From a virus, in IMG/VR virus record IMGVR_UViG_3300005841_000071, positions 1-30,857 of that record: a stretch of 30,857 nt of DNA. One strand, given 5' to 3'. The position numbers were made by a program, and so were the translations under genes. Shown one piece after another: positions 33 to 25,471 of the stretch (the first letter of the stretch is position 1; each line of letters opens with the position of its first letter). The notes under the pieces were generated by a model. It made no database searches. It was not told the origin of the DNA and saw only the letters and a program-made list of their open reading frames with translations.

Positions 33-305
33 TTACTCGAAACTGGGGTTCTCGTAGCGTCCTTCCGCAAGCTGGCGCGCGACTCGGATGCGCGTAGCAA
101 GCACAACGTCGCGAGCAACGTTAGCCCAGTTCACCGAGCCTGCACCCATGATCTCAGCCAGAACGCCTTCTGTACCTAGACTGCTAAGGTAGCTGGTGAG
201 TCGCTCCTCGGGCCAATAGGACATGCACAAAGCAATGTCCTCGTGACTCGAATCCTTGTTCTCCCAGGTCGCAGCTTGCTCTTGTTCGGTTGCGAAAATT
301 TTCAT
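33..305 (-). CDS. hypothetical protein, 90 aa
   Basis: I do not recognise this protein. It is small, soluble and mostly helical in appearance, with an acidic N-terminal half and no Cys motif, signal peptide or membrane segment. Its ATG shares an ATGA overlap with the stop of the upstream methyltransferase gene, so it is probably translationally coupled to it and belongs to the same early operon. The 32 bases left of its stop show no gene. Confidence 0.7.
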   Translation of the reverse strand: MKIFATEQEQAATWENKDSSHEDIALCMSYWPEERLTSYLSSLGTEGVLAEIMGAGSVNWANVARDVVLATRIRVARQLAEGRYENPSFE

Positions 306-850
306 ATCTCATCTCCGTATTGTTGCCAGCCTGTGCGCTGGGTTCTTGCAAACAGTTCGACGTAGGGGCCTTTGCACATCGCCTCTACGGCGTTATAGAA
401 CTCGTCGGGTTTGGCCGAGTGACGGCCGCGTGGTGCAATGATGACAGAACGCGTGCTGTGAGAGTCGACATGGCCACGGCCTCGTCGACCAATCATGCAG
501 ACCTCGTGAGCTGCGCGCACATAATGACCGTTGCCAAAAGCAAGGAGAGCTTCAGGAAGTTCTCCTTCACGCTCGACGGGCTCGAACTCTTTCGTGGTCT
601 TGACCCACACGAGCTCCGTCTTGTACGTGTATCCCCACTTCTTCATGACGTCGAAGGCGATCTGAGGACGCGAGGCGAGACGCCACAGGAAGAGCAGCGA
701 ATCGTCTGCCATGATGGGCAACTGAAAGTTGAGGATATCCTCGTCTTTCATAAGGTCGTAATGCTTCTTCGCCGCTGTCGTTTTGAACGCCTGCCCGATC
801 ATCCAAGGCGGGTCAGCGACGAGCACGCGAGGAAGCTTAGAGGTGCTCAT
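302..850 (-). CDS. MT-A70-family adenine N6-methyltransferase
   Basis: This is a predicted SAM-dependent methyltransferase that adds a methyl group to the N6 amino group of adenine in DNA. The catalytic DPPW motif lies at residues 13-16, a GNGHYVR...E segment follows mid-protein, and the C-terminus has the family ending ELFAR...GW. The length of about 182 aa is normal for phage MT-A70 orphans. I chose the ATG at 850 because it overlaps the upstream gene by only 14 bases; an in-frame ATG at 889 would add 13 residues. No restriction partner is adjacent. In a phage predicted to replace adenine by 2-aminoadenine, its true substrate (A or Z, both with an N6 amino group) is an open question. Confidence 0.85.
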   Translation of the reverse strand: MSTSKLPRVLVADPPWMIGQAFKTTAAKKHYDLMKDEDILNFQLPIMADDSLLFLWRLASRPQIAFDVMKKWGYTYKTELVWVKTTKEFEPVEREGELPEALLAFGNGHYVRAAHEVCMIGRRGRGHVDSHSTRSVIIAPRGRHSAKPDEFYNAVEAMCKGPYVELFARTQRTGWQQYGDEI

Positions 851-1172
851 TTTGTCGCTCGAGACGCCACTCGCTCCCGTCGTTACCATAGACCTCGAGG
901 CATTCCTTCTCGCGATACTCGACTCGGTTCATGTAGCTGCCTCGATCGGCGTACGAGTTGGAATTGTAGCCCATAATACGACCGTCAGCCACAGCCGCAG
1001 TGAACCGCACGGCCATATCGTTCGCTGCTTCTTGGCGCTGAGCCTCTACTTCGTGCTGCTTGGCGATGGCGAGCTGGGTCTGCACTTTCGATAGCTCTCG
1101 CTGTAGCTCTTGCTCTCGTGCTGTGAGCTCCTCGACAGTCGGGCCGGCGAAAAGATTGGTGGGTATACTCAT
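837..1172 (-). CDS. hypothetical coiled-coil protein, 111 aa
   Basis: The function is not recognised. Residues about 14-50 form a charged, Glu/Gln-rich helix with heptad character, likely a coiled coil, followed by a short polar C-terminal region. The start overlaps the preceding gene's stop by ATGA at 1169-1172. It sits between a DatZ-side gene and the MT-A70 gene in a tightly packed operon; nothing in it indicates catalysis. Confidence 0.65.
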   Translation of the reverse strand: MSIPTNLFAGPTVEELTAREQELQRELSKVQTQLAIAKQHEVEAQRQEAANDMAVRFTAAVADGRIMGYNSNSYADRGSYMNRVEYREKECLEVYGNDGSEWRLERQNEHL

Positions 1173-1456
1173 AGGTCGTCCTCGTCGTAAACTCGGTTGG
1201 TGTCTTTACGCGCACGCAGCAGAGCGTCCACCAACGGATCACCAGCCAGCGCATCGATCTTGTTGTGGACAGCGTTCCACAGCTTGCTGTTAGCTTCTTG
1301 CCTGTCGTTGCGTGCGTCTTGCAGCATGGGCTTTAGCTCCTCGGCTTGCGTTAGCAGAGCGTTGCGTTGCTCGCAGAGAAGCTCTGCCTTGCGGTCTGCC
1401 TTTGCAACCTCGAGAGCTAGAGCCTGCAGCTCGTCATCCACGAACAGCTTGCTCAC
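1169..1456 (-). CDS. hypothetical helical protein, 95 aa
   Basis: This is an unrecognised protein, highly charged and predicted helical through residues 8-60, with an acidic C-terminus (DEDDL). It is coupled to the DatZ-like gene by an ATGA overlap at 1453-1456, and to the next gene in the same way. Its placement directly behind the HD phosphohydrolase could mean a partner role, but there is no direct evidence. Confidence 0.65.
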   Translation of the reverse strand: MSKLFVDDELQALALEVAKADRKAELLCEQRNALLTQAEELKPMLQDARNDRQEANSKLWNAVHNKIDALAGDPLVDALLRARKDTNRVYDEDDL

Positions 1457-2040
1457 CGCGACACCTTGTTAATGCGCGCGTAACGCGAGAGGAACTCGAA
1501 CTCTGCCTGCTGGGGGGCCCAGGGCACGATGGTAAAAGGCAGCGGTTTGGGCATACGCGGCTTGACTTGTTCCCAGTATTCGGTTTGCGTGAACTTGGTC
1601 ATGAGGTCGCGGAACTCGGTGGACAGCGACACCACGTCGGCCTGTTTCACTGCCTCTGGCTCGTTGTCTGGGCTGAGCTTGAACTTAGCGACGATGGCGG
1701 CCATCGCCTGCTTTTCGATCGCGTGGTAGCCCTTGAACGCAGGCGAATACTTGAGCGGTCGGGACACGTCGTTTAGGTACGCCTCGGAAGCATCATGCAG
1801 CAGGCCCCACAGCTTGAGCTCGTCGGGAAGCTGATCCGAGACGATGCAGCTGTGTTGTGCGACTGAGAACGCAAACTCGCCGTCCGTGTGACCGGTGAAG
1901 CGAGCAATGCGAGAGAGCGCATGCGCGATATCGGAGATGTCGATGTCCTCAGGCCAGAGGTTCAGAGGATCGACGTTCCGGCCAGAAAAAGTCGGAATCT
2001 TGGAGACACCTTTCACGGTGCCAGCGGTTTCGAAGTTCAT
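1453..2040 (-). CDS. datZ: DatZ-like HD-domain dATP triphosphohydrolase
   Basis: This is an HD-superfamily (YfbR-like) phosphohydrolase of 195 aa. The metal ligands are visible: His63 in VAQHS, His82-Asp83 in LLHDASE, nearby Glu86, and Asp135 in KQAD. The N-terminal DIAHALSR..RFTGH segment is typical of the YfbR/DatZ group. In Z-genome phages DatZ removes dATP from the pool (dATP to deoxyadenosine plus triphosphate) so that dZTP is used instead. YfbR-like phage proteins also include general dNMP 5'-nucleotidases, so the fold alone does not prove dATP specificity. The purZ-like gene 600 bases upstream on the same operon makes DatZ the best reading. The start is coupled by ATGA to the upstream gene. 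Confidence 0.8.
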   Translation of the reverse strand: MNFETAGTVKGVSKIPTFSGRNVDPLNLWPEDIDISDIAHALSRIARFTGHTDGEFAFSVAQHSCIVSDQLPDELKLWGLLHDASEAYLNDVSRPLKYSPAFKGYHAIEKQAMAAIVAKFKLSPDNEPEAVKQADVVSLSTEFRDLMTKFTQTEYWEQVKPRMPKPLPFTIVPWAPQQAEFEFLSRYARINKVSR

Positions 2041-2258
2041 TCGCTGATCCTCACTACAACGCAGTAATCCTTACCGATGATCTTACGCAACTGGTGCGCG
2101 ATCGACTTCTGGCGGAATCTCAGCCTGTCGAAACGAGGCGAGTCAACCACCACGTCTTCTAGCTTTTCTGCTCTCTCGAGGTCTTTGGCACCGAGCCAGT
2201 AGTTCATGTCGTCGGTGCCGTCGAGCTCTGCAATGTCTTTGTATCGGATGGCGTACAT
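2037..2258 (-). CDS. hypothetical protein, 73 aa
   Basis: The protein is not recognised. It is a small alpha/beta-looking protein with a basic centre (residues about 42-62, rich in Arg and Lys) and a hydrophobic beta-like end (CVVVRI). It has no Cys pairs or membrane segment. The stop overlaps the datZ-like start by ATGA, so the two are probably coupled. The start is three bases after the upstream acidic protein's stop. Confidence 0.65.
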   Translation of the reverse strand: MYAIRYKDIAELDGTDDMNYWLGAKDLERAEKLEDVVVDSPRFDRLRFRQKSIAHQLRKIIGKDYCVVVRISE

Positions 2259-2261
2259 ACT

Positions 2262-2390
2262 CTAATCCTCGTCGTAGTCGGGCTCGTCGCCCCACTCGTC
2301 ATCGTAGTCGTCGGTGTCGTCATCGTCGTAGAAGTCGTCGTCGAAGCCGTCGCCGCCGTAATCCCCGTCGCCAGGTCCCATGGCTACCAT
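2262..2390 (-). CDS. very acidic 42-aa protein
   Basis: This tiny protein contains 18 Asp and 3 Glu in 42 residues, concentrated in a C-terminal run broken by Tyr, Phe and Trp. No fold is recognised. The density of acid plus aromatics resembles phage DNA-mimic or inhibitor proteins, but this is inference from composition only. The start at 2390 overlaps the preceding gene's stop by 7 bases; an in-frame ATG at 2381 is the alternative. A longer version reaching further upstream would run through two better-supported small genes and is unlikely. Confidence 0.55.
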   Translation of the reverse strand: MVAMGPGDGDYGGDGFDDDFYDDDDTDDYDDEWGDEPDYDED

Positions 2391-2503
2391 CCTGTCACCG
2401 CCTGAAAGAGCGTCTTTGTGATCCACAGCCCGAGCAGTCCGCCCGTGAAGAGCAGCCACGCCAAAAAGATGCCCGTGATTATGTTACCGATTAGCTTGCC
2501 CAT
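2384..2503 (-). CDS. small single-span membrane protein, 39 aa
   Basis: The 39-residue product has one strong hydrophobic segment from residue 5 to about 33, rich in Ile, Leu, Phe, Gly and Trp, so it is a predicted membrane micro-protein. A perfect AGGAGG ribosome binding site lies six bases before the ATG, one of the best in the window, which is why I call it despite its size. It overlaps its upstream neighbour by 20 bases and its downstream neighbour by 7. The function is unknown. Confidence 0.65.
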   Translation of the reverse strand: MGKLIGNIITGIFLAWLLFTGGLLGLWITKTLFQAVTGW

Positions 2504-2651
2504 TGGCTTCCTCCTGTCGCTTCTCGTTGCCTGCGAGCTTGGCCAACAGTCTCTCCCTGTGGCACCGTTCGCACAACACAGGGTCTTGTACGTAGCGCTG
2601 CTTGCCAGGTCCGCCGCAGTCTTCGCACATCGTACCGGTCGTAAACCACAT
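2484..2651 (-). CDS. small zinc-ribbon-like protein, 55 aa
   Basis: The protein has two CxxC knuckles, Cys9-Glu-Asp-Cys12 and Cys27-Glu-Arg-Cys30, followed by a basic helix. This pattern predicts one structural zinc and possibly nucleic-acid or protein binding. Its ATG overlaps the purZ-like stop as TGATG, so it is very likely translated by coupling to purZ. It is not a recognised member of the Z pathway. Confidence 0.65.
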   Translation of the reverse strand: MWFTTGTMCEDCGGPGKQRYVQDPVLCERCHRERLLAKLAGNEKRQEEANGQANR

Positions 2652-3769
2652 CACACGTACTCCTCTCTGACGACCATGTCTTCATGATCTGCGCCTGTGC
2701 CGATGAGCGCCACGGGCAGCCCAGTCCTCGTCTCGATCTCGTCTACGAATTCGCGCGTGTTGCGCGTCAGCTTGTCGAAGTCTCGCTTACCGTTGTCGCT
2801 CCAATCGATGTACTGGGCGAAGTTGAGGCACAGCTTGGTCGCGCCGTTCGTGCGCACAGCGTCCTCGAGGTTCTGCCACGAGAACGTTGCTACTCGACGT
2901 ATCCGCTTGGTGACGGTAGTTCGTTCACGCTCGGCGAGTTTGATGGTCTCATCGTAGGGCATTCCAGCTCTTGCCGCCACTTCTGCCCATGTGATTTCCT
3001 GGCTGTCGGGATAGAAGTCGCCAGAGCTACCCTGGGCGATGTTTCCGACACGGATTGGATAGCTCCTGATATTGAGCCAGACGTCGCCGAGTCTCTGAGG
3101 TGCCACGCCAAGATAATCCAGAGCGGCAGCGGTAGTGCAATTGCGGCTAGTACACTGAGGATAGTGCGAGCCGTGGTCGATAGAGAGCGCATATCCTTGT
3201 GATCCCTCGTGCAAGATGTCGTCGTAGCTGAGAATGTCGTGGATGGCGTCACGGAACTTCTGGGCTTGCAGGATATGAACGCCCTCCAGAGCGAGAAACG
3301 CATCGCTGTACTGGGCAGCAACAGGAGCGTTCTGCTTGCGGAGGATCTTGTCGGTCATCGCTGCAGCCGTGCCCTGCATGGTGCTGGCGATGTGCGCTGT
3401 GCTTTCGGCCCCTTCCCTCTCACGCGCCGCATGCTCGTCGGTGAGGACACACGCTCTTTCGTGGATGTAGATGGGAGGCTTGCCGCACTCCTTCCATTCC
3501 TTCGTGAGCTGTGACCAGGTGAAGCCTGAACCAGGAGTGAGGAAGAACGCGCAATCCCAGGCTTCGCAGTCGCGCCACAGCATCGCCGCCGTGGGAATGG
3601 CCTTGGCTACGAACTTGAAACCGTTACGGAGCGCCGTATGGCCGGCGTTCGGGAAGTTGGCTGACGAAACACCAGCGTAGCCCTTATGATCGGCGAGCCA
3701 GGTAGACAGCTTGCCCTTGCCAGAAGAGCCGTACGCCGCATCGAGAACAACGTCAACATGACCGCGCAT
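2651..3769 (-). CDS. purZ: PurZ-like N6-succino-2-amino-2'-deoxyadenylate synthase
   Basis: This is an adenylosuccinate-synthetase-fold enzyme of 372 aa, predicted to join dGMP and aspartate to give dSMP, the committed step to 2-aminoadenine (Z). The P-loop YGSSGKGK (residues 13-20) has Ser15 where PurA has its catalytic Asp, the replacement described for PurZ. The remaining motifs are intact: NAGHT (41-45, catalytic His44), EGSQG (188-192), TSRNCT (207-212), YPIRVG (237-242) and TVTKRIRR (285-292). At the PurA guanine-specificity site (TKLD) the sequence reads LNFAQ (315-319), lacking the Asp, which fits ATP rather than GTP as phosphate donor. At 372 aa it is shorter than bacterial PurA (about 430), as phage PurZ is. 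The ATG at 3769 follows GGAGG by seven bases; an upstream TTG at 3775 is less likely. PurZ0 is the alternative identity. Confidence 0.93.
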   Translation of the reverse strand: MRGHVDVVLDAAYGSSGKGKLSTWLADHKGYAGVSSANFPNAGHTALRNGFKFVAKAIPTAAMLWRDCEAWDCAFFLTPGSGFTWSQLTKEWKECGKPPIYIHERACVLTDEHAAREREGAESTAHIASTMQGTAAAMTDKILRKQNAPVAAQYSDAFLALEGVHILQAQKFRDAIHDILSYDDILHEGSQGYALSIDHGSHYPQCTSRNCTTAAALDYLGVAPQRLGDVWLNIRSYPIRVGNIAQGSSGDFYPDSQEITWAEVAARAGMPYDETIKLAERERTTVTKRIRRVATFSWQNLEDAVRTNGATKLCLNFAQYIDWSDNGKRDFDKLTRNTREFVDEIETRTGLPVALIGTGADHEDMVVREEYV

Positions 3770-3771
3770 GA

Positions 3772-4065
3772 TCAATCCTCCGCGTAGAGCGATCGTTCGA
3801 GCTCGTACACGGCCGCGCGCATGGCGTTTTTCGCCTCTGCGAGCTCACGTTTCGAGTCGTTGTAGATCACTTCGTCACAGTTAAAGCGCTTTTGCACTTC
3901 TGTCAACACTTCGCGCGCCTGGCGCACTTCTTCCATCGCCTCGTCCACCGGCTTGCGGATCGGGATGAGCTCGCCCATGTTCTTGGGGCTGACCTGAGCC
4001 GGCTCTTCCAAATCCATTGTGTAGCCGATGAGCGTTTTGCCATCCGGCCCGTAGATCTCTGCCAT
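3772..4065 (-). CDS. hypothetical protein, 97 aa
   Basis: The protein is not recognised. The N-terminus (IYGPDGKTLIGYTMD) looks like a small beta hairpin, and residues 40-95 are a long charged helix likely to form a coiled coil. It lies directly upstream of purZ: its last codons carry the GGAGG that serves the purZ ATG, so purZ translation should depend on this gene being translated through. The start shares TAATG with the upstream stop. Confidence 0.65.
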   Translation of the reverse strand: MAEIYGPDGKTLIGYTMDLEEPAQVSPKNMGELIPIRKPVDEAMEEVRQAREVLTEVQKRFNCDEVIYNDSKRELAEAKNAMRAAVYELERSLYAED

Positions 4066-4256
4066 TACAGGTACTCCGTTTGTAGCAGCGCACCAAGCGC
4101 TCGTTCTGCTTCTTGCACTTCGAGGTCGAGCGTCACGCGCTGCACGAGGAATTCCCGCACCTCGGTCCGCTTCTCGTAGGGAGTGACTTTGTACATCATG
4201 CTGTTCTCGACGATGGTTTGTGCACGATCGCGAGGGAGGGGACCAGGCCAGTTCAT
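4065..4256 (-). CDS. hypothetical protein, 63 aa
   Basis: The protein is unrecognised. It has a short Pro-rich N-terminus and then an amphipathic helix rich in Glu, Arg and Leu (residues 28-60). I chose the ATG at 4256 because it makes an ATGA overlap with the preceding membrane protein gene; an in-frame start at 4283 would intrude further into that gene. There are no catalytic motifs. Confidence 0.6.
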   Translation of the reverse strand: MNWPGPLPRDRAQTIVENSMMYKVTPYEKRTEVREFLVQRVTLDLEVQEAERALGALLQTEYL

Positions 4257-4378
4257 CGATCGTAGGGTCGCCCCTTCAACCACGACGAGAACTCGATGTA
4301 GAGCATGTGGCCGACAGCGAGCAACAGTACGGGCATCGCTGCGACTTTGTAGAGACGGACGACGTTCTTAGTTTTCAC
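4253..4378 (-). CDS. small membrane protein, 41 aa
   Basis: A GTG start at 4378 gives a basic N-terminus (KTKNVVRLYK) followed by one hydrophobic span at residues 12-31 and a short basic tail, the layout of an N-in single-pass micro-protein. It overlaps the upstream gene by 11 bases and couples to the next by ATGA. The ribosome binding site is weak. The function is unknown. Confidence 0.5.
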   Translation of the reverse strand: MKTKNVVRLYKVAAMPVLLLAVGHMLYIEFSSWLKGRPYDR

Positions 4379-4592
4379 GGGCCAGGTCCAACAGGTTCTC
4401 GACTGGATAGTGTATCTCGCCGATGTACAACACACCTGGGAATCCCCAAGACTGGTAGCCATCATCGGCTAGGGCAAGGCACGTGTAGCGCCACGCTCCG
4501 CACACGCACACCTCTTTGGTGCGGATGCGATTATCGTTCTCATGACGCCAATCTTCTTCCCAGTAATGAATGAGGAAATCGGAGTCGTTCAT
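4368..4592 (-). CDS. hypothetical protein with Cys cluster, 74 aa
   Basis: This is a small acidic, aromatic-rich protein with Cys29-Val-Cys31 and Cys38, which may bind a metal, followed by a beta-rich segment (SWGFPGVLYIGEI). The family is not recognised. The start makes an ATGA overlap with the preceding PPC-motif gene. Confidence 0.6.
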   Translation of the reverse strand: MNDSDFLIHYWEEDWRHENDNRIRTKEVCVCGAWRYTCLALADDGYQSWGFPGVLYIGEIHYPVENLLDLAREN

Positions 4593-5158
4593 CGTTTTGC
4601 GTCCCTCGCCATTTCAATCAGCCACTCAGCAAATGCGAGAGGCGTTCTGTTTCGTTGAGCCTTGCTACAGACCTTGATGCCAGGTGGTACAGGGCCTCTG
4701 GGCGCAGTGCGCGAGCCTGAGCACCAGTGTGTTGGAGTTCCGCCAAAACGGCACGTGCGATCCACGAGGTTTTTATCCACTCGGACAAAGTAGAGCCACG
4801 TGGTTTTTCTTGCGACGTGTCCCCACGCGCATTGATCGACGACGATAGAGAAACCATACGCATCGTGTTCTCCAGGACGAGGCAAGCCGGCTGCATCCCA
4901 GAGCTTGGAATTAGCCGGCTGCTCGAGCACGCCACCGTTTTTCCTCACCTGCTCCACGGCCAGCAAGCCCAGCTCTGCTTCCTCTGGCTTCTTGTGGAGG
5001 TGCTTCAGTCGCGACCATGGGCCGCACGGCGGATGCGCAACAACAGGCTTGCCGCCTTGGTACGTGCGAGCGTCGCGCTTCTCGTCGTACCACTCTCTCA
5101 CCAGCTTAGGGTACGGGCCCCGTGGCTCGACGTAGAGAGCCACGACATCTTCTGTCAC
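4589..5158 (-). CDS. PPC-motif protein of methyltransferase-like phage family
   Basis: The 189-aa protein matches, from memory, a widespread uncharacterised phage/actinobacterial family with the layout ALYVEPRGPYP..VREWYDEKRDARTY.G..PVVAHPPC. The Pro-Pro-Cys at residues 43-45 followed by Trp-Ser resembles motif IV (PC) of cytosine C5 methyltransferases and lies after a beta strand, as it would in a Rossmann fold. However, there is no clear SAM-binding FxGxG motif at the N-terminus. Later segments (GGVLEQPANSKLW, GHVARKTTWLYF) are family hallmarks. It may act on DNA or nucleotides, but the reaction is unknown. The GTG start at 5158 overlaps the upstream stop as GTGA and follows GAGG by seven bases, so I prefer it to a longer ATG start at 5254. 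Confidence 0.65.
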   Translation of the reverse strand: MTEDVVALYVEPRGPYPKLVREWYDEKRDARTYQGGKPVVAHPPCGPWSRLKHLHKKPEEAELGLLAVEQVRKNGGVLEQPANSKLWDAAGLPRPGEHDAYGFSIVVDQCAWGHVARKTTWLYFVRVDKNLVDRTCRFGGTPTHWCSGSRTAPRGPVPPGIKVCSKAQRNRTPLAFAEWLIEMARDAKR

Positions 5159-5340
5159 TCGAAGACCTCGTCCTGGCACTTTTGACAGAGACGCGAGATG
5201 CTGTACTCTTTGCGCGAGAGCTCGTCGCGGAAGTTGAGATCGGGTGTCTTGCACCCAGCACAGCTAGCGCACGTCTCACCGTAGGCTGCTTCTCGCACGA
5301 TCTCGAGAAAGTCGACCAGCGCTTTGGGCTTAGTCGACAT
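5155..5340 (-). CDS. small zinc-ribbon-like protein, 61 aa
   Basis: Cys pairs occur in a CASCAGC segment (residues about 24-30) and in CQKC near the C-terminus, predicting a zinc ribbon. An N-terminal helix precedes them. The ATG at 5340 overlaps the upstream nucleotidyltransferase gene by 11 bases; the longer in-frame start at 5409 would lie deep in that gene and is unlikely. The function is unknown. Confidence 0.6.
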   Translation of the reverse strand: MSTKPKALVDFLEIVREAAYGETCASCAGCKTPDLNFRDELSRKEYSISRLCQKCQDEVFE

Positions 5341-5953
5341 AGAACACCTGTTGCTCGGACAGGTCAGCCTTCTGAATCTCGCGAGCGATCGTGAGCAGAC
5401 CACCAGCACAGATGGTGAAGCCCTTCTGTGTGTACTTCTGCAAACGACGCAGCGTCGACATGGGATGACTGACTGTGTGGCAGACGAGCTTGCGGTGGGC
5501 CAGGTCCTCGAAGAACCGCTTGTGATAGAAAAAATCGCCCTTGCGGTTGAAGGCAGCAGCAGCGATGGTGAAGTCGAAGCTGTCGACCGTCGCCTCTACC
5601 GTTGCGAAGGTGCGCTTGCACAGATCGATCTGCCCGAGATGCGTATCGACTTTGCAGACGAAATTGTTTTCGAGCACGATCTTCGACGTGCCTGTGTTGA
5701 CCGCATCCGTCACGCCTGGTTTTGTGATGCCGAGCACGAGCGGTTTGGCTTCCAGCCACTGACCCGCGTTGGAGAAGAAGAGGTCCCAATCGGTGTGGCA
5801 CTCGCCGGTCAAGCAGAGATCACGGATAGCACCGCCAGCGATGCAGCAGCTGATCCCGGGAAGCTCGTTGAAGATCGGCTTGCACTTCTCGAAGGCGTAC
5901 GATACCGCGGCCGGCTGTTGTCCAGGCTTGAGCACGAGGATGTCAGTTAGCAT
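5330..5953 (-). CDS. nucleotidyltransferase, CCA-adding/poly(A)-polymerase-like
   Basis: This 207-aa protein has the class II nucleotidyltransferase signature. GGAIRD lies at residues 40-45, DWD with Asp55 and Asp57 as likely metal ligands, and a third acidic strand at Asp110 (GQIDL). The SFDFTI segment is typical of the CCA-adding superfamily head domain. It is about half the length of a bacterial CCA enzyme and lacks a full neck/body/tail. It may therefore act on an RNA, protein or small substrate rather than on tRNA 3' ends. Phages carry such short enzymes with unknown roles. It sits between the MazG-like and PPC-motif genes and shares a TAATG junction with the MazG-like stop. Confidence 0.7.
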   Translation of the reverse strand: MLTDILVLKPGQQPAAVSYAFEKCKPIFNELPGISCCIAGGAIRDLCLTGECHTDWDLFFSNAGQWLEAKPLVLGITKPGVTDAVNTGTSKIVLENNFVCKVDTHLGQIDLCKRTFATVEATVDSFDFTIAAAAFNRKGDFFYHKRFFEDLAHRKLVCHTVSHPMSTLRRLQKYTQKGFTICAGGLLTIAREIQKADLSEQQVFYVD

Positions 5954-6441
5954 TAGATGTCCGAGCCTCCCCAGGTGTGAGTTACTTCGAAAGGCTGGCT
6001 GCAGCTGGCTACTTGGTCATGCAGAATCTGCGCAATTTGCGGAGGTTGCCAGCCTTCGGGCTTGAGCTGCTTGCCGTCTTCGCGTTTGGCGCCACCGCGC
6101 TTGTTCATGTTGGTACGATGAATTTCGTCCAGCACAGGCTCGGAGTTGATGCCGAAAGCCTGAAATGCTGACTCTACGACATACGCTGTATCGCCCAGCG
6201 CATCGGCAGCCTCGACAAGATCGACGGCTGGCTGGTCGTAGCCAATGCAGTCGGCCAGAATGTCTTTAATCTCATCGATCCAAGGTTGCTTGCCGTACAC
6301 GGCCTCGAGAAACTCGCAGAACTCCTCCGCGATGAGACGCACGGCCTTGTGCACCGCTTCCTCGTTGGGAACCATCGGGAACTCTGGGTTTTTGATCCCG
6401 AAAGCAGCGCAGAATTGCTTGAGCATTTGTCTGATGGTCAT
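5953..6441 (-). CDS. MazG-like nucleoside triphosphate pyrophosphohydrolase (MazZ candidate)
   Basis: This all-alpha NTP pyrophosphohydrolase of 162 aa has the metal-binding pattern ExxE (EEFCEFLEA, residues 39-47) and ExxD...D (EAADALGD, 77-84). The C-terminal segment (EIHRTNMNK..., then a KPxGWxPP stretch) is common in phage MazG/phosphoribosyl-ATP-pyrophosphohydrolase-like proteins. It would hydrolyse a dNTP to dNMP plus pyrophosphate. In the Z pathway MazZ supplies dGMP to PurZ from dGTP, so it is a candidate for that step. Generic MazG house-cleaning of other dNTPs is the alternative. A GGAGG site six bases before the ATG is strong. It lies 32 bases after the DNA polymerase gene. Confidence 0.75.
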   Translation of the reverse strand: MTIRQMLKQFCAAFGIKNPEFPMVPNEEAVHKAVRLIAEEFCEFLEAVYGKQPWIDEIKDILADCIGYDQPAVDLVEAADALGDTAYVVESAFQAFGINSEPVLDEIHRTNMNKRGGAKREDGKQLKPEGWQPPQIAQILHDQVASCSQPFEVTHTWGGSDI

Positions 6442-11094: not shown

Positions 11095-11473
11095 TGGCAG
11101 ACTCCACATGCTTCTTGGCGAGCCGACGCCCGAAATTGAACGCGTCTTTGTGCGCCTTCAACTTGTCGCCCATCTCGCTGAACTTGTCGCCGTCGAACCC
11201 GTTGATGAACGCGCTAACCCAAGCGCGCGGCTTGCCGAGGATACGAGCAGCAGCAGACTCGTAATCCGAACAGCGAAGATCGACCTTTTTGCCGCACATC
11301 ACAAGGGCAAGAGGACAGCCACAGCTCTGCGGCAACGTATACCGCATTTGCTCGCTTACGCCGAGGCCCCACGTGCTTTTTTTGAGCTCCACACCAGCAG
11401 CTTTGTTCTGTCGGATGGCGCGGTTGATGATACGATAAACGTTCTTTTTTCCTTTTTCGATCGTCATTTTCAT
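11087..11473 (-). CDS. hypothetical basic protein, 128 aa
   Basis: The protein is lysine-rich with four Cys, including CGC and C...C around residues 52-70, and a helical C-terminal third. The family is not recognised. The stop of the upstream helicase overlaps its ATG (ATGA at 11470-11473). A second ATG at 11467 sits eight bases after GGAG and may be the true start. Placement behind the RadD-like helicase suggests a DNA-related role, as inference only. Confidence 0.65.
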   Translation of the reverse strand: MKMTIEKGKKNVYRIINRAIRQNKAAGVELKKSTWGLGVSEQMRYTLPQSCGCPLALVMCGKKVDLRCSDYESAAARILGKPRAWVSAFINGFDGDKFSEMGDKLKAHKDAFNFGRRLAKKHVESANA

Positions 11474-12840
11474 TTCTCCAGTTCAAAACGTAACTGATAA
11501 TCTGGCCATTGTCCAGTGTATGATTTGATGATAACAGAAGCTTTATTGGCTCCGAACTTCTTCTCGAGTTTGAACCACTCTTGTCGGATTGCCTTCGGTC
11601 CGAGGCGCAGCCACTGGGCTTGAGTCGGTCGGCTGCCGAACAGCTTCTCGAACTGCTCTGCTGCAGCGGCCCATCGCCAGCCTATCGTCGTCATGCGCGC
11701 GAGCTCGGTCTGCTTCGCGTCTTCTGGCGTCTCTGACCCGTTGTAGACCTCTTGCAGAGCTACGTCTTTGATCTTGGGGGGCCTGAACACACCAGGGATA
11801 AAAGCGGTATCGCACGTAATGCAGCTCTTGCGCCACGCCTCCATTACAGCCCCACACTCATAGCACTGCCTCACCGGTATTGGATTGCTCTGCGAGATCG
11901 CTGTGCCGGTCAAGCTGTACGCTCTATCTGCGGTCGGCATCCCATGGCGCTCGCTTGCGCTCGTGAGATCGAGCAGCACGCCGTAGGGCTTGCCTGGAGA
12001 CGGGCGCAGCACACGTCCTGTCGTCTGAATGTAGATGCCCTCATGCCCGCATTTGCGCGCTAGAATGCACACCTGAGCGGAGGGAACGTCTACTCCCTCG
12101 GTCATGGTGGCGCAGTTTATGATCAAGCGGATATCGCCTGACTCGAGCTCTGCCATAGCACGCACTCGATCTTTCTCCGAGCTCTTGGCGTGCACAATGG
12201 CTGTTTTGACTCCAGCCTGATCGAAGCTCTCTTTTACCATCTGCGCGTGCTTATTGTTCTGCACGAAGCAGAAGCCACACATTCCAGGCGTGTAGCGCTG
12301 GTACGCAGTCAGCGGGTCTTGTGCTAGCCCGCGGTTGATGTCTTTGTTCGGCCGAAACACGCGGCAAGGCACGAGATGCCCCTGCGCCATGAGCTCGCTA
12401 TAGTCAGCGATCTTCACCATCGACTCGAACAAATGATCGAGAGGACGGCCGTCGTAGCGCTCTGGCGAGGCTGTAAGCCCAATCACCTTCGCGTTCGGGT
12501 AGCGACGAAGAACGTATTCCCAGCTATCAGATGGCGCGTGGTGGCACTCGTCCACAACAAGCACGTCAGCTTCGGGCCAGTGCCACCTAGCGCGCGTCTT
12601 GAAGCCTTGTATCGTCCGCACGGGCCAGTCAACGCCGTAGCTGTACACGCGTTGCTGCGTCTGCCGGCAGAGGTCGCGCCTGTTGCACAGCCACAGAGCT
12701 TTACCGTACTTTTGTGCCAGCGCTACTCCGGTGTTAGTCTTGCCGCAACCCGTGGGGCCAACTAGGCAAACTGACCGGTGTTTTTCGAGCTCAGCAGCGC
12801 CGTTTTCTACGGCTCGCTCTTGGTAATCGCGCAGCGGCAT
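11470..12840 (-). CDS. RadD-like DEAD/DEAH-box (SF2) helicase
   Basis: This 456-aa SF2 ATPase has a Q-like motif LRDYQERAV (residues 3-11), Walker A GPTGCGKT (28-35), DECH (97-100), TAS (123-125), and motif VI QTTGRVLRP (272-280). A CYEC...CITC zinc ribbon (Cys326, 329, 340, 343) follows. This arrangement matches the RadD/YejH group, which remodels branched DNA and interacts with SSB. It may act in phage recombination or replication-fork restart with the SSB, Sak4-like ATPase and nuclease genes. The start overlaps the small upstream gene as TGATG. Confidence 0.9.
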   Translation of the reverse strand: MPLRDYQERAVENGAAELEKHRSVCLVGPTGCGKTNTGVALAQKYGKALWLCNRRDLCRQTQQRVYSYGVDWPVRTIQGFKTRARWHWPEADVLVVDECHHAPSDSWEYVLRRYPNAKVIGLTASPERYDGRPLDHLFESMVKIADYSELMAQGHLVPCRVFRPNKDINRGLAQDPLTAYQRYTPGMCGFCFVQNNKHAQMVKESFDQAGVKTAIVHAKSSEKDRVRAMAELESGDIRLIINCATMTEGVDVPSAQVCILARKCGHEGIYIQTTGRVLRPSPGKPYGVLLDLTSASERHGMPTADRAYSLTGTAISQSNPIPVRQCYECGAVMEAWRKSCITCDTAFIPGVFRPPKIKDVALQEVYNGSETPEDAKQTELARMTTIGWRWAAAAEQFEKLFGSRPTQAQWLRLGPKAIRQEWFKLEKKFGANKASVIIKSYTGQWPDYQLRFELEK

Positions 12841-12986
12841 CAGAAGCCATGACCGCTCTTGAACAGAAACGCTAGATACTTCACCAGATGCTTATGGCTC
12901 CAACCGTCGTAATTGACGTGGAGCCAGTTCGCAAGACGACGCACGTTTTCTGGACGAGCTTTATTAAGCTGTTGTCTGGTCAGCAC
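12840..12986 (-). CDS. small helical protein, 48 aa
   Basis: A GTG at 12986 opens a 48-residue helical, basic protein (RPENVRRLANWLHV, HKHLVKYLAFLF). Its stop overlaps the helicase ATG as TGATG, arguing for genuine translation. It overlaps the upstream dGTPase-like gene by 23 bases. The same frame is open further upstream, but that part is only a shadow of the dGTPase-like gene. It may be a DNA-binding peptide; the function is not known. Confidence 0.55.
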   Translation of the reverse strand: MLTRQQLNKARPENVRRLANWLHVNYDGWSHKHLVKYLAFLFKSGHGF

Positions 12987-13404
12987 GCTTCGCTTCTTCG
13001 ATTTCGAGCAAAAAACCCAACCGACACCGCGCATGCGCCAAGTGCGGCTTGCCGGTCTCAGGGTCGAGGTACTCACCACGTCGGTACGCCGAGATGTGCC
13101 GCATGAGCGAGGCGAAATGCTGGTCCACGCTCTCGTTCCGCCACTTCTGCACGCCGTTATCTTCGTGCTTGCCCACACCAAAAGCCATCACGTCAGCTTC
13201 GAGCTCCATCGCCCGGAAGCTCACCAGGTCCCAGCGTGCCTTCTTCATTTTGTCTTCTTTTTGAGGAGCTGCAGTATTTTTCATTTCAAGCGGAACCTCA
13301 GGCGGCGAGGGAAATTTGTCAATAGCTTCAGCATCGTTTGGGTTGAACCAACCGAAGCTGCGCGCAACAGACTCTGATTTGTAAGGCCACGATCCTGTTG
13401 GCAT
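12964..13404 (-). CDS. dATP/dGTP diphosphohydrolase-family protein (second MazZ candidate)
   Basis: The C-terminal 95 residues match, from memory, the dATP/dGTP diphosphohydrolase N-terminal-domain family (previously DUF5664). Family features are ARWDLVSF (57-64), an acidic helix, MAFGVGKHE, SLMRHISAYRRGE (99-111) and GKPHLAHARCRLGFLLE. His103, Glu111, His121 and His124 are candidate active-site residues. Members from Z-genome phages convert dGTP to dGMP for PurZ and may also act on dATP. The first 55 residues are not conserved. The ATG at 13404 overlaps the upstream micro-gene as TAATG, which fixes the start at 146 aa. If correct, the window encodes two independent enzymes able to provide dGMP. 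Confidence 0.8.
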   Translation of the reverse strand: MPTGSWPYKSESVARSFGWFNPNDAEAIDKFPSPPEVPLEMKNTAAPQKEDKMKKARWDLVSFRAMELEADVMAFGVGKHEDNGVQKWRNESVDQHFASLMRHISAYRRGEYLDPETGKPHLAHARCRLGFLLEIEEAKRADQTTA

Positions 13405-13517
13405 TACTGGCACACTTTTGCAAGCTCGTGCAACAAATAAACAGCGCGTAGCGAGGTGGCCATGGCCGCTGCTGTCACGAGCATCCACATCACAACAAAC
13501 ACGCGACCCGGAGTCAT
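13404..13517 (-). CDS. small membrane protein, 37 aa
   Basis: A 37-residue ORF encodes a single hydrophobic span (VFVVMWMLVTAAAMA, residues 6-20). It is bracketed by exact coupling on both sides: ATGA with the upstream gene at 13514-13517 and TAATG with the dGTPase-like gene at 13404. This makes it a convincing micro-gene despite its size. The function is unknown. Confidence 0.6.
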   Translation of the reverse strand: MTPGRVFVVMWMLVTAAAMATSLRAVYLLHELAKVCQ

Positions 13518-14369: not shown

Positions 14370-14792
14370 CTAGAATCGGTCGAAGCTCTCTTCTTCCTCT
14401 TCACCACCAGCAGAGTTACCACCGCTCTCCTGCTGTTCGCTATTGCTGCCCTCCGCTCGAGCACCACCGCAGAGTACGATGTTGTTCGCGACGACCTCGG
14501 ACTTGTAACGCTTGTTACCGTCCTTGTCCTCGTAGCTCGAATTGCGGATGCTTCCCTCGACGAGAATCCGCGATCCCTTCGTGAGGAACTTGGCGAGAGC
14601 CTCGCCACGCTTGCCCCACAGAGTGACCGTGTGCCACTGCGTGCTTTCCTGCCTGACCTTGTTTGCATCCAGATAGCTCTCGGTCGTAGCGAGCCTCATG
14701 TTGAGGACGGCTTTGCCCGAGTTTGTGTATCGAAGCTCCGGATCAGCTCCGAGGTTTCCAAGGAGTGTCGCTCTGTTCAGTCCATCAGCCAT
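14370..14792 (-). CDS. ssb: single-stranded DNA-binding protein
   Basis: This 140-aa SSB has an OB-fold sequence beginning LNRATLLGNLGADPELRYT and continuing with VLNMRLATTE, STQWHTVTLWGKRGEALAKFLTKGSRILVEGS, all SSB hallmarks. A Gly/Ser/Asn-rich linker leads to an acidic tail ending ESFDRF, the partner-binding tip equivalent to DIPF in bacterial SSB. It coats single-stranded DNA during replication and recombination and likely recruits the RadD-like helicase. The ATG at 14792 has GAGG eight bases upstream; an in-frame ATG at 14810 is possible but poorer. It overlaps the nuclease gene by 8 bases. Confidence 0.95.
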   Translation of the reverse strand: MADGLNRATLLGNLGADPELRYTNSGKAVLNMRLATTESYLDANKVRQESTQWHTVTLWGKRGEALAKFLTKGSRILVEGSIRNSSYEDKDGNKRYKSEVVANNIVLCGGARAEGSNSEQQESGGNSAGGEEEEESFDRF

Positions 14793-15759
14793 TTTCGTTT
14801 CCTCTTTCATTTCGAACGCGGGTTTCCTTGTAGGATCCCTTGTCTTTCATGTACATTTTCCCGTTGGGAAGTAAAAATCCGCCCGATTGGTCAACGTACA
14901 GCTTCAGTGATTTTTTAACCGCGTCGCCTGTCTTTGTCAACAGAGCCTTGATCTCGTACAGCTTGTTGGCTTGCTCGTCGTCTTTGATGTCACACGACGA
15001 GTCGATGTTGCTCAACAGATCAGCGCCCGTGTATTGCTCGAGCTTGCTCAAAGTAGCTGGGCAGGTACTAGCCATAGGGCAGTACAGATTCACGCAGTGC
15101 GGGCCAGGCGATGGTTCGCTGCCTGGCACGTGGAGGAACGCTGTGATAAAGCGTCCTTCGAACTCGTCGATCCTCTCCTTCTCCAGTACCCAGTGATGCG
15201 GGTAGCACTCACCAGACGCAACCTTCAGCACGATGCACACAACGCGTGTGGCATCGTAAATCCTTGCGGCTGCTAGGCCCAGGAAGTTCAGCTGATCCTT
15301 GTAAATTTCCCACGGGGTGTGCCCGGTTTTGTAGTCAACCACGCAAACTGTGCCGGGCTTAACTGCAATAAGATCTGCAGTACCGGGGAATTCTCCGTCA
15401 ACACAGCCTGTATAATCTCGCGGCTCTGGCTCGGTGAGTACCCGCGCCGTGCGAGTGTTGACATTATAGGCGACTTTCTGCTCGTGATACTTCGTGCCAC
15501 CGATGTGCTCTTGGTGCCACGTGTACAACGCCCAGCCGTCGACTTTCGCTTGCTCGAGCTTTTCTGGTGTGAGCTCGTGTTCATTGGCGAGAGCTTGCAG
15601 GTCTAGTTCAACGCCTGTGCTGTGGTGCTCAGCGATAGCGTGCGTTACGATGCCGTAATGCGCTCCTTCGCCTGTGTCATTGGGCGGAGCCGGGATGTCC
15701 GACCTCGCCCAATAACCGCACTTCATCAGCAGATTCGTTCTACTTGCCGACGCTTCCAT
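14785..15759 (-). CDS. Cas4/RecB-like PD-(D/E)XK exonuclease with Cys cluster (DUF2800-like)
   Basis: This 324-aa nuclease has Asp129 in GTADLIAV, Asp142-x-Lys144 in VVDYKTG and Gln156 in DQLNFLGLA, the PD-(D/E)XK core of RecB/Cas4 nucleases. One Cys near the N-terminus (Cys14) plus three near the C-terminus (Cys222, 227, 233) match the spacing seen in Cas4 and AddB iron-sulfur nucleases. It probably resects DNA ends for the Sak4-like ATPase encoded immediately upstream, forming a phage recombination pair. The start overlaps the upstream gene by 20 bases. No CRISPR genes are nearby, so an adaptation role is unlikely. Confidence 0.85.
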   Translation of the reverse strand: MEASASRTNLLMKCGYWARSDIPAPPNDTGEGAHYGIVTHAIAEHHSTGVELDLQALANEHELTPEKLEQAKVDGWALYTWHQEHIGGTKYHEQKVAYNVNTRTARVLTEPEPRDYTGCVDGEFPGTADLIAVKPGTVCVVDYKTGHTPWEIYKDQLNFLGLAAARIYDATRVVCIVLKVASGECYPHHWVLEKERIDEFEGRFITAFLHVPGSEPSPGPHCVNLYCPMASTCPATLSKLEQYTGADLLSNIDSSCDIKDDEQANKLYEIKALLTKTGDAVKKSLKLYVDQSGGFLLPNGKMYMKDKGSYKETRVRNERGNENG

Positions 15760-16468
15760 TTTCCGTCTTGGGTGCGCCGTCGGAGAGCCAAGCCTTCACA
15801 AGATTTGCGAAGTTTTCACCTGGTTTCTCGAAGACCTTACCGTCGACGTCAGGACAGCGTGTCTTGCCGATGACGAAGTTGTGCTCCATCGTCATCATAC
15901 CCTCGATGTCGAGGTTGTATACGAAGTTGTCGCGCATCTCGCCAGCAAGGCCCAGCTTCTTAACCTGCTTCTTGCCGTTGGCGCCTTCCTCGATCACGTG
16001 CTCGGTCTTCGCTCGGACCGTCATGATCAGGTGGATAGGCGCAGACAGAATCTGCTGAACCATCCGCTGATAGATCGGGTCAACGACCTTCCACGCACCG
16101 AAACTGTCGTATTTACCACCACGAGCAGCAGCTTTCTTCGCTTCTTGGTCGACTAGCGAGAGAAAGCCTCCTTCGCTGTTCCAGAAGTGCGTGAGGCTGT
16201 CGATGACGAGCACATCATACTCGCTTGCGGCTTCTTTGATGAGCTTGCCGATCTTGTCGGGATGGTACGGCTCGGTGAGCTGGCACACATCGAATTCGAA
16301 CTCCTTAGCGTACTTGCTAGCGGAGCCGTACTCGGTGTCGCCGAAAGCAACACGGCCAAACTGAGAAGCGATCTTGAGAGCGGAATACGTCTTACCAGAG
16401 CCGGAAGGACCCTGGATGCCGAGACGCAGCTTTGCTTGTGATTTTGTCGCTCGTTGAAAAACTGACAT
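15740..16468 (-). CDS. Sak4-like RecA-fold ATPase (annealing/recombination)
   Basis: This 242-aa single RecA-like domain has Walker A GPSGSGKT (20-27), Walker B VLVIDS (86-91) and an arginine-containing segment IMTVRAKTEH. It matches phage AAA_24/Sak4-type proteins, which function as single-strand annealing or recombinase factors, often near SSB and a Cas4-like nuclease as here. Acting on single-stranded DNA, it probably supports replication-linked recombination. A GGAGG lies about eleven bases before the ATG, and a 27-base gap separates it from the upstream gene. Confidence 0.88.
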   Translation of the reverse strand: MSVFQRATKSQAKLRLGIQGPSGSGKTYSALKIASQFGRVAFGDTEYGSASKYAKEFEFDVCQLTEPYHPDKIGKLIKEAASEYDVLVIDSLTHFWNSEGGFLSLVDQEAKKAAARGGKYDSFGAWKVVDPIYQRMVQQILSAPIHLIMTVRAKTEHVIEEGANGKKQVKKLGLAGEMRDNFVYNLDIEGMMTMEHNFVIGKTRCPDVDGKVFEKPGENFANLVKAWLSDGAPKTENGSVGK

Positions 16469-23511: not shown

Positions 23512-24305
23512 TATTTAACTCCATCCCAGTACAGAGCGCCGTTCCAGCGCTGTCTGAAATCATACCAGTTGCCTGCGGGGAACGGTGCTGTTCCACCACC
23601 ACCAGGCACCCAAATATTAGAAGGATCGTTGTGCACAACGATAATGTTAGTGCAGTCTGAGCCAGAGGCTTTCCATTTAGAGACGATCGAACGTATGTCG
23701 CCAACTAGAGCCTGAGTGGCTGTGCTGCCCCACGATGACCCGTCTCCCCACGTCCACGTGCCCCAGTTTTTCGGCAGGATCAACCCAGTAGCTGGTGCGT
23801 TCAAAATGTAGAGAATGATCCAGAAGTGGAAGTCTCCAGGATCTGATCCGAACCAATCCCAGTCGCGAGGTTGCGCACGCGTGTAAGTCGTTGAGCCTGC
23901 TTGCAGCGTAATCCAGTCAGAGAATCCGTCGCCTTGATCGTCTTGGCCATTTACAACGTAACGGATAGTAGGCACAAACGGCGAGACGTAACCAGCAAGC
24001 TGCCCGATGATCGCGTAGGGATTGCCCGCAACCTTCCACGTCGGGATGGCTTGCTGCAAGCGCGCGATGTAAGCCGCATCCGTCTCTTGGAATCCGCGCA
24101 GGATTTGCCTGTCGTGGCCAATAAACGGCAGAGCCTCGCGTGTCCCGTACCCGGGCATGCGCGCGAGCACGCCTTGCTTCAGCGCTTCACTCACAGCATC
24201 GATATGAGTAGCACAGTTGTACATAAAGCGATATCCCCAAAAGCCCTGTAGCCAGCTAGGGCAGATGGTTTTGACGGACTCGCGGAAGGTGGTCGTTTCA
24301 GCCAT
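23511..24305 (-). CDS. baseplate distal protein, gpI-like
   Basis: This 264-aa protein follows the J-like baseplate gene, the usual position of gpI in P2-type and Mu-type baseplates. The sequence has the aromatic-rich layout typical of such proteins (YIARLQQAIPTWKVAGNPYAIIGQLAGY, WTWGDGSSWGS, DIRSIVSKWKASGSDCTNIIVVHN). The RSIVSKWKASGSDCTNIIV segment resembles gpI-like terminal domains. It should connect the wedge to the fibres. The start shares TAATG with the J-like stop. Confidence 0.72.
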   Translation of the reverse strand: MAETTTFRESVKTICPSWLQGFWGYRFMYNCATHIDAVSEALKQGVLARMPGYGTREALPFIGHDRQILRGFQETDAAYIARLQQAIPTWKVAGNPYAIIGQLAGYVSPFVPTIRYVVNGQDDQGDGFSDWITLQAGSTTYTRAQPRDWDWFGSDPGDFHFWIILYILNAPATGLILPKNWGTWTWGDGSSWGSTATQALVGDIRSIVSKWKASGSDCTNIIVVHNDPSNIWVPGGGGTAPFPAGNWYDFRQRWNGALYWDGVK

Positions 24306-25471
24306 TATGTGCTCGTAATCGTGAAGTTCGCGCCAACAGACGTGATAACAGCCACTTCGTTCTGTGCAAGAGCAACGGAAGCGCCACCAGGCGACGAGAT
24401 CGTTACCTCAATGAACTCACCCGAGGCTTGATAAATCTGGCCAATAAGAGCGTCCACGAACACCTTACCACCAGAGCCGATGTCGAATCCGCCGATCGGG
24501 ATCGTCTTGAAGTAGTTTTGCAACTGGACCAGGATCTGATCCTGAGCTACGCTGGGAGCGAGCGTCGATCCGTGTTTGAGATAGACGGTAGCCGACACGA
24601 GGATGTTGTGCGCTACAGCCGAAACGGTCGTCTCTGCAAAACCCGTAGGCACGCAATTTTTCTGGATCTCGTCGTGGATCGCACCCAAGTCTGTCGCTGG
24701 GTTGCCCATCGTACCCGCGATCGCGCCCGTGGCGCTGGCTACGTACACTGTCGTCGAGCCGTTCCCAGCCGACACGACGAGCGTTCTCGTGACCCCCACG
24801 TTAGAGCCGTCAGAAAGCCGTGTCGCCGCCTTTGCGAAGAAGTCGTAAGCGTCGCCTGGCCCATTGGGGCTGGCCGCTGCCAAAGACTCACGGCAGCGTT
24901 CCCGGAGCTCCTCGTCGGTCTCCTCGTCATTGGCCGTCAGGGGCGAGGCGTTCGACATCGTTACGCCGAGAAGAGGCGTCACGAGGGAGTTAATCGCGCT
25001 AGCCGTGGCGTTGAAGCTGGTGCCTGACTGGTCAGCGATGATTTGAACGTCTAGCGTTCCACCAGAAGCGCCCAGCGTGCCTCCGGTCGTGTTTGTGTAC
25101 GTCGCGCCCGTGCTGCCATTGAGGAAGTGGAGATCACCAGCGTTGATGACGTACGCCACGCCAGAGCTGTTAGACAGGCTCTCCGTGGTTGTGCCGAAAG
25201 TCGCAGGCGTGCGCGTTAGCCCGTACAGCGACCTCGCTAAGAGGGTCAGCCATCCACCAGTAGCGTAGTCCAACAATCCGCCGCTAGCGATGGCTGAAGT
25301 TGTCGTGGTGAAGTCGGCGATTTTTTGCGCGATGACCTCCAAGATCTCTCGCGGTACGCTGCCTGACTGCCACGCTGTGATAGGAAATCCCAAAGACTGG
25401 GCAACGCTCAGCATAGACGAAAGGATGGTGTCCTTGTCTAGCGGCGTGAACATTTCAGAAAGAGTGAGCAT
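24305..25471 (-). CDS. baseplate wedge J-like protein
   Basis: This 388-aa protein matches the baseplate J family (P2 gpJ, Mu gp47, T4 gp6). LLDYATGGWLTLLARSLYGLTRTPA occurs in the N-terminal part, NDEETDEELRERC at about 180-195 and PNGPGDAYDFFAKAA after it, followed by the conserved core with VTRTLVVSAGNGSTTVYVAS and the C-terminal PIGGFDIGSGGKVFVDALIGQIY. It forms dimers in the wedge ring around the hub. It lies in canonical order after the gp25-like gene, with a 9-base gap. Confidence 0.9.
   Translation of the reverse strand: MLTLSEMFTPLDKDTILSSMLSVAQSLGFPITAWQSGSVPREILEVIAQKIADFTTTTSAIASGGLLDYATGGWLTLLARSLYGLTRTPATFGTTTESLSNSSGVAYVINAGDLHFLNGSTGATYTNTTGGTLGASGGTLDVQIIADQSGTSFNATASAINSLVTPLLGVTMSNASPLTANDEETDEELRERCRESLAAASPNGPGDAYDFFAKAATRLSDGSNVGVTRTLVVSAGNGSTTVYVASATGAIAGTMGNPATDLGAIHDEIQKNCVPTGFAETTVSAVAHNILVSATVYLKHGSTLAPSVAQDQILVQLQNYFKTIPIGGFDIGSGGKVFVDALIGQIYQASGEFIEVTISSPGGASVALAQNEVAVITSVGANFTITST

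What the first reader, a model, noticed from the sequence alone, without database searches (positions are those of the whole stretch)
1453..6441. A PurZ-DatZ-MazG set predicts a 2-aminoadenine (Z) genome in a contractile-tail phage
Seen: an adenylosuccinate-synthetase-fold protein with Ser15 in place of the PurA catalytic Asp, a compact YfbR/DatZ-type HD hydrolase, and a MazG-fold pyrophosphohydrolase, all in one operon with the DNA polymerase. Known: PurZ makes dSMP from dGMP, DatZ destroys dATP, and MazZ provides dGMP in phages such as S-2L and phiVC8. Inference: this phage replaces A with Z in its DNA. To my knowledge the characterised Z-phages are siphovirus- or podovirus-like, so a myovirus with this set would be new or rare.
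Basis: partly seen in the sequence, partly recalled or inferred. Interest (0 to 1): 0.95.

Follow-up and report, generated by a model that had tools for sequence, protein, structure and literature searches.

The report
PurZ-like phage, possibly 2-aminoadenine DNA
A contractile-tailed phage carries a new, diverged relative of the enzyme that some phages use to swap adenine for 2-aminoadenine in their DNA, but its helper enzymes and DNA polymerase are not the known ones, so the swap is plausible and not yet shown.

Summary
A PurZ-type protein (Ser15 for the PurA catalytic Asp), an HD hydrolase, a MazG-fold protein and a DNA polymerase do lie on one strand. A second contig completes a ~62-kb circular map with a tail sheath, so the tail is contractile. 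But the HD protein is not in the DatZ family, and the MazG protein matches neither MazZ-1 nor MazZ-2. The polymerase is family B, not DpoZ (family A). The PurZ-like protein falls in a well-supported clade, sister to the known PurZ, yet scores below NCBI's curated PurZ cut-off. Of 45 IMG/VR loci of that clade, 28 lie on contigs of 100 kb or more and 18 on 200 kb or more. A PurZ myovirus (Burkholderia phage Bm1) is already in GenBank. A MT-A70 adenine methyltransferase in the same gene run speaks against full replacement of A. Best reading: a third PurZ lineage in a family-B-polymerase myovirus, with Z in its DNA likely at least in part. Only LC-MS or an enzyme assay can settle it.

The parts
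2651..3769 (-). PurZ-like succino-aminodeoxyadenylate synthetase, 372 aa from ATG 3769 (374 aa from TTG 3775); Ser15 replaces the PurA catalytic Asp
1453..2040 (-). HD-domain hydrolase, phrog_318 / Atu1052 type; not DatZ
5953..6441 (-). MazG-fold (PRA-PH, DR2231-like) pyrophosphohydrolase; not MazZ-1 or MazZ-2
12964..13488 (-). DUF5664 / PF18909 dATP/dGTP diphosphohydrolase N-terminal domain (match 12988-13266); best candidate for removing dATP and supplying dGMP; exact start codon uncertain
   Evidence: activity of homologues in PMC12884076
6474..8819 (-). family-B DNA polymerase, exonuclease motifs present, motif B reads NAFMG (Met472 where 5 of 5 compared enzymes have Tyr)
302..889 (-). MT-A70 family N6-adenine methyltransferase with DPPW motif (motif recalled)
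11470..12840 (-). SF2-type helicase of the replication module
14370..14810 (-). single-strand DNA binding protein
14785..15759 (-). PD-(D/E)XK exonuclease
15740..16468 (-). AAA_24 ATPase with weaker Sak4-like match
24305..25471 (-). baseplate J-like protein
25481..25888 (-). gp25-like baseplate wedge protein (just under the Pfam cut-off)
27938..29692 (-). tape measure protein
30452..30857 (-). tail protein, cut by the window end (tube by position, inferred); the sheath gene follows on contig G001 (48267-49682)

Best explanation
The phage makes dZTP and puts Z (2-aminoadenine) into its DNA, at least in part. Steps: the PurZ-like enzyme joins aspartate to dGMP to give dSMP (inferred from residues and tree); host PurB and kinases turn dSMP into dZTP (described for other Z-phages, inferred here); the DUF5664 protein, perhaps helped by the MazG-fold protein, cuts dATP and dGTP to monophosphates, lowering dATP and supplying dGMP (activity shown for a homologue in another phage, inferred here); the HD protein may clear dAMP (weak inference); the family-B polymerase copies with dZTP (inferred). 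It is a differently assembled Z-system, not the S-2L/phiVC8 triad.
For: Ser in place of Asp in the window and in 40 of 44 clade rows, the other 4 having a gap there. Of 20 columns in which at least 7 of 8 known PurZ share a residue that both PurA controls lack, the window matches PurZ in 13, PurA in 1, neither in 6; three PurZ0 controls match PurA in 6 each. Tree: 41-row clade with the window, 99/97, sister to 8 known PurZ, jointly 98/91. Without three rows flagged as long: 97/95 and 99/92, and a grouping with PurZ0 is rejected (p-AU 0.0005; group named after seeing the tree). Foldseek's first five PDB rows (four entries) are PurZ. DUF5664 at 81 bits, cut-off 27. One pattern scan of GTDB contigs found no relative.
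Against: NCBI's PurZ model scores 201.6, below its cut-off of 300 and only 18 bits above the archaeal-type PurA model, while phiVC8, S-2L and a PurZ0 score 397, 350 and 368. No DatZ, MazZ or DpoZ. HD, MazG and DUF5664 relatives are found in 275, 171 and 233 GenBank phage records; of the 20, 20 and 25 rows listed none is among the 60 PurZ records listed. A MT-A70 adenine methyltransferase is present here and in 0 of 41 other PurZ-carrying records, some of them fragments. VIA-align ranks an archaeal PurA first (Z 44.0) over phiVC8 PurZ (42.6). The first tree joins PurZ0 with PurA and both trees flag that as a possible long-branch join, unlike PMC12884076, which groups PurZ0 with PurZ. PMC12884076 also reports Ser or Gly in four archaeal sequences, so Ser alone is not proof.
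Confidence: 0.55

Rival explanations
1. Partial or mixed Z-DNA: dZTP is made but dATP is not fully removed, so the DNA holds both A and Z, and the MT-A70 enzyme still methylates remaining A. (A part of the best explanation's range, listed because it predicts a different experiment.)
For: MT-A70 in the same gene run; no DatZ; a polymerase family not known to prefer Z.
Against: PMC12697855 (passage) notes that protection would require near-complete substitution; a DUF5664 homologue does remove dATP (PMC12884076).
Confidence: 0.35
2. The enzyme is a phage adenylosuccinate synthetase with ordinary or altered purine use (IMP, or dIMP) that boosts purine pools; the DNA is canonical and the HD, MazG and DUF5664 proteins are ordinary pool enzymes.
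For: Below the PurZ cut-off and near the archaeal PurA model; helper enzymes of families found in many phage records; adenine methyltransferase; in 16 of 49 loci clustered a ThyX-type gene lies near PurZ (one representative tested), so the gene may belong to a general nucleotide set.
Against: Catalytic Asp replaced by Ser in every clade row that covers it, whereas PMC12884076 reports Asp conserved in 99% of its prokaryotic PurA group; tree places the clade with PurZ.
Confidence: 0.3
3. The PurZ-like gene is a capture from large phages and makes Z nucleotides for a purpose other than the genome, for example to disturb host purine pools.
For: Its 22-row starred set otherwise holds contigs of 44 to 436 kb, many of them large; a family-B polymerase in a PurZ-carrying record was found only here among the records tested.
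Against: The gene sits inside the replication run with PolB, SSB and DUF5664.
Confidence: 0.1

Closest known systems
PurZ of Vibrio phage phiVC8 and cyanophage S-2L
   Same: Ser for Asp, TTVTK motif, NF(A/C)(N/Q)Y motif, fold
   Different: separate sister clade, 35-36% identity to phiVC8 in structure alignment, below NF038379 cut-off
Burkholderia phage Bm1 (PP183292; myovirus by TEM)
   Same: contractile tail, similar genome size (67.5 kb), PurZ (37% identity), a primase/polymerase gene
   Different: true DatZ (phrog_7076), family-A polymerase, a MazG-domain protein
S-2L/phiVC8 Z-cluster (datZ-mazZ-purZ)
   Same: PurZ-type enzyme with pool enzymes nearby
   Different: HD and MazG proteins belong to other families
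PurZ0 phages (Arthrobacter phage Herb)
   Same: DUF5664 dATP/dGTP diphosphohydrolase domain
   Different: PurZ0 lies apart in the tree; polymerase annotated as DNA polymerase I
IMG/VR PurZ clade, mostly on large contigs (L003-L009, L061-L097)
   Same: same PurZ clade, 37-58% tblastn identity
   Different: contigs up to 436 kb, no family-B polymerase found in those tested

Membership tests
PurZ (succino-aminodeoxyadenylate synthetase) | Ser in place of the PurA catalytic Asp | tested here: met
PurZ (succino-aminodeoxyadenylate synthetase) | groups with characterised PurZ, apart from PurA and PurZ0 | tested here: met
   as a separate sister clade; PurA represented by two sequences (one), PurZ0 by three
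PurZ (succino-aminodeoxyadenylate synthetase) | NCBIfam NF038379 curated cut-off (300 bits) | tested here: not met
   201.6 bits. Controls: phiVC8 397, S-2L 350, Bm1 320, ZP6 384, Bhz9 419, Herb PurZ0 368 pass; Ochrobactrum OH 241, Bacillus BpsS-140 211, large-phage L004 198 and L087 222 fail
PurZ (succino-aminodeoxyadenylate synthetase) | uses dGMP and aspartate to make dSMP | not testable with these tools
   needs an enzyme assay
DatZ | member of the DatZ family (phrog_7076, PF12917) | tested here: not met
   known DatZ of phiVC8, S-2L, Bm1, Bhz9 hit phrog_7076 best; phiVC8 and Bhz9 also hit phrog_318 weakly, so the families are distant kin. Window HD hits phrog_318 best and not phrog_7076, 12 bits with a DatZ HMM of 8 sequences, 17.2 bits with PF12917, cut-off 25.9
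MazZ-1 (DUF550) / MazZ-2 | match to MazZ-1 or MazZ-2 profiles | tested here: not met
   MazZ-1 HMM -1.8 bits, MazZ-2 HMM 1.5 bits, each built from 4 proteins, some assigned by gene position; best Pfam family PF01503
DUF5664 dATP/dGTP diphosphohydrolase | PF18909 over its cut-off | tested here: met
   81 bits, cut-off 27; phrog_801 94 bits
DpoZ | family-A DNA polymerase | tested here: not met
   PF00136 family B; no PF00476 match in G000 or G001
contractile-tailed phage | tail sheath gene | tested here: met
   PF10758 125 bits, phrog_907 tail sheath, on the overlapping contig
Z-phage | dZ in virion DNA | not testable with these tools
   needs LC-MS of virion DNA; the window is a metagenomic virus record

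The most novel reading that the evidence does not exclude
The window belongs to a third PurZ lineage found largely on big phage contigs (28 of 45 loci on 100 kb or more, 18 on 200-436 kb). If these enzymes work as PurZ, 2-aminoadenine DNA extends to phages several times larger than the Z-phages described in the papers read, and in this phage is copied by a family-B polymerase beside an adenine methyltransferase that may act on Z itself.
Probability: 0.35. Interest if true: 0.87.

Novelty: new variant of a known kind. Interest (0 to 1): 0.6.

Why it matters
The papers read report a family-A polymerase in most or all known Z-phages except S-2L, which has a PrimPol, and mostly DatZ/MazZ or DutZ/DUF5664 to manage the pools. 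A phage with a diverged PurZ, a family-B polymerase and other pool enzymes would show that Z-DNA can be assembled from yet another set of parts. It would also give a test of which parts are really needed, and the large-phage clade would widen the known reach of base replacement.

Tried and rejected
Rejected: DatZ and MazZ identities. Rejected: first myovirus with PurZ, because Bm1 precedes it. Led nowhere: single-protein scans of IMG/VR with the window's PolB and HD protein found only the phage's own second contig. The genome scan with A2 gave 43 pattern stretches and no relative, so host and cellular origin stay unknown. A tree of the large-phage family-A polymerases was considered and not built; the first-ranked GenBank row for one covers 66% at 36% identity. 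PF04984 is insensitive here: it missed Bm1's annotated sheath. Tyr to Met in motif B of PolB is only suggestive, since dG also carries a minor-groove amino group (recalled). The 20-column test rests on 8 PurZ and 2 PurA sequences, and the HD alignment misplaces the first metal histidine of the window protein (compare). I did not check how many of the 204 PurZ records also hold HD, MazG or DUF5664 relatives; 15 of the 233 DUF5664 records are Arthrobacter phages, which may be PurZ0 phages.

Rows dropped: L012 (partial) and L002 (same as window) from A1; L070, L095, L096, L097 (partial or apparently intein-split) from both trees; E. coli PurA, OH and S-2L from the second. L073 has one in-frame stop, entered as X in the trees. 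References were 12 phages fetched of 204 GenBank records with a match.
Full report
What the window is. The window is a whole IMG/VR virus record of 30,857 bases. A second record, IMGVR_UViG_3300005618_000022 (G001, 52,121 bases), matches window 1-18390 at 99.995% and 28485-30857 at 100%, in circularly permuted order. Together they give a circular map of 62,215 bases. That map carries a tail sheath (PF10758, phrog_907), a Mu-type portal, major head protein and protease, and gpJ and gp25-like genes. The phage is contractile-tailed by gene content.

The PurZ-like protein. It matches NF038379 (PurZ) at 201.6 bits, against 183.4 for the archaeal-type PurA model, and phrog_1211. In a 62-row alignment the PurA Asp is Ser in the window and in 40 of 44 clade rows, the other 4 having a gap there. 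Of 20 columns separating 8 known PurZ from two PurA, the window agrees with PurZ in 13, with PurA in 1 and with neither in 6. The tree puts it in a clade of 41 rows (99/97) sister to the 8 known PurZ (98/91 jointly). This stands without three rows flagged as long, and a grouping with PurZ0 is rejected at p-AU 0.0005, the group having been named after the first tree was seen. The first tree joins PurZ0 with PurA, and both trees flag that as a possible long-branch join; PMC12884076 groups PurZ0 with PurZ. The model (pLDDT 93.8) has four PurZ entries as Foldseek's first five rows; VIA-align puts an archaeal PurA first by a small margin, so fold alone does not decide. Against membership: phiVC8 and S-2L PurZ score 397 and 350 with NF038379 and pass its cut-off of 300, while the window and two large-phage relatives score 198-222 and fail. 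I therefore call it a sister lineage of PurZ that probably works like PurZ.

The helper enzymes. Known DatZ proteins hit phrog_7076 best (4 of 4 tested; two of them also hit phrog_318 weakly). The window HD protein hits phrog_318 and the solved Atu1052, and scores 12 bits with a DatZ HMM built from 8 sequences and 17.2 with PF12917, under its 25.9 cut-off. Its relatives occur in 275 GenBank phage records. The MazG-fold protein is PF01503 and DR2231-like and matches neither MazZ HMM; its relatives occur in 171 records. None of the 20 and 20 rows listed is among the 60 PurZ records listed. A DUF5664 domain (PF18909, 81 bits) lies at 12988-13266. A homologue of it in a PurZ0 phage turns dATP and dGTP into monophosphates (PMC12884076; abstract, sections 4, 15, 24, 25, 26 and a term search seen). 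DUF5664 relatives are present in 233 phage records, so the domain is not a mark of Z-phages by itself.

The polymerase. It is family B with the exonuclease motifs present. Family B was found in 0 of 32 other IMG/VR records with PurZ-like genes and in 0 of 12 GenBank PurZ or PurZ0 phages. PMC8342488 (passages and section 8 seen) says that all ZTGC phages then considered except S-2L have PolA. Motif B reads NAFMG, with Met472 where 5 of 5 compared polymerases have Tyr. In RB69 this Tyr567 helps hold minor-groove waters (PMC3799440, passages), and Y567A is less discriminating, as seen with a 2-aminopurine:dC pair (PMC3377560, passages). This is a hint, not a proof. The genome also has a Prim-Pol/VapE protein, so PolB may not be its only polymerase.

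Evidence against full replacement. A MT-A70 adenine methyltransferase lies at 302-889. Of 43 PurZ-carrying records searched, only the two records of this phage have one; some of the others are fragments. Either A remains, or the enzyme acts on Z or on host DNA.

The large-phage clade. A profile scan of IMG/VR found 45 loci (the phage's own G001 among them), 28 on contigs of 100 kb or more and 18 on 200 kb or more, up to 436 kb; a GTDB scan found none. Long family-A polymerases occur in G003, G005, G015, G018, G020, G026, G033, G040 and G047; G006 has a family-A match in two pieces and many of the others only short, weaker ones. YfbR-like HD proteins over the cut-off occur in 8 of the 50 IMG/VR records searched; they keep the DatZ metal ligands but 7 of 8 have Ser or Thr at the Ile22 position, so they are not plain DatZ. 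Sheath genes were found in 9 of 25 large contigs, all outside the 22-row set that holds the window. For two such PurZ proteins no listed GenBank phage row exceeds 32.4% and 38.2% identity (10 rows listed of 76 and 213 records). Paper searches gave no report of PurZ in jumbo or huge phages among the rows listed: 1 of 1; 15 of 98; 15 of 75; 15 of 47. Two jumbo-phage overviews hold none of the terms aminoadenine, adenylosuccinate or PurA (PMC13282480, PMC7824862; term search only). The library holds only open-licence papers, so this is weak evidence of absence.

What is known. Bm1 is a myovirus by TEM (PMC12003559, passages and section 18 seen) and carries PurZ, DatZ and a family-A polymerase; the terms adenylosuccinate and aminoadenine do not occur in its main text. 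So a contractile Z-candidate exists already. PMC8342488 (passages) and the abstract of PMC8599892 name siphoviruses and podoviruses. PMC8065100 was seen in passages (DatZ residues), PMC12697855 in passages.

Verdict. A new variant of a known kind, probable but unproven. I put about 0.75 on dGMP use by the PurZ-like enzyme, 0.55 on Z in the DNA, and less on full replacement.

Noticed in passing
IMG/VR loci L003-L009, L061-L097: The PurZ clade of the window lies largely on big phage contigs, 28 of 45 on 100 kb or more; by clustering, a ThyX-type gene lies near PurZ in 16 loci and DNA polymerase III delta-like genes in 16 and 15.
   Followed up: partly
L070, L095, L097: PurZ-like genes seem to be interrupted, with intein-like endings (pattern recalled) at the PurZ reading frame.
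   Followed up: no
window 302-889: MT-A70 adenine methyltransferase in a phage with a PurZ-like gene; none in 41 other PurZ-carrying records.
   Followed up: partly
L002 14327-16552 (G001): Prim-Pol/VapE-like protein in the same genome, so two polymerase candidates exist.
   Followed up: partly
window 4589-5254: phrog_12600 protein of unknown function with a PPCGPWSR stretch that looks methyltransferase-like by eye.
   Followed up: no
window 17000-17716: Protein that looks like a secreted trypsin-type protease by eye.
   Followed up: no
MH884512.1 (L050): Bacillus phage vB_BpsS-140 has a PurZ-like protein with GSEGKG that joins L010, L011 and L013 in a further branch outside the known PurZ and the window's clade; it also has a gene annotated as adenylate kinase.
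   Followed up: partly
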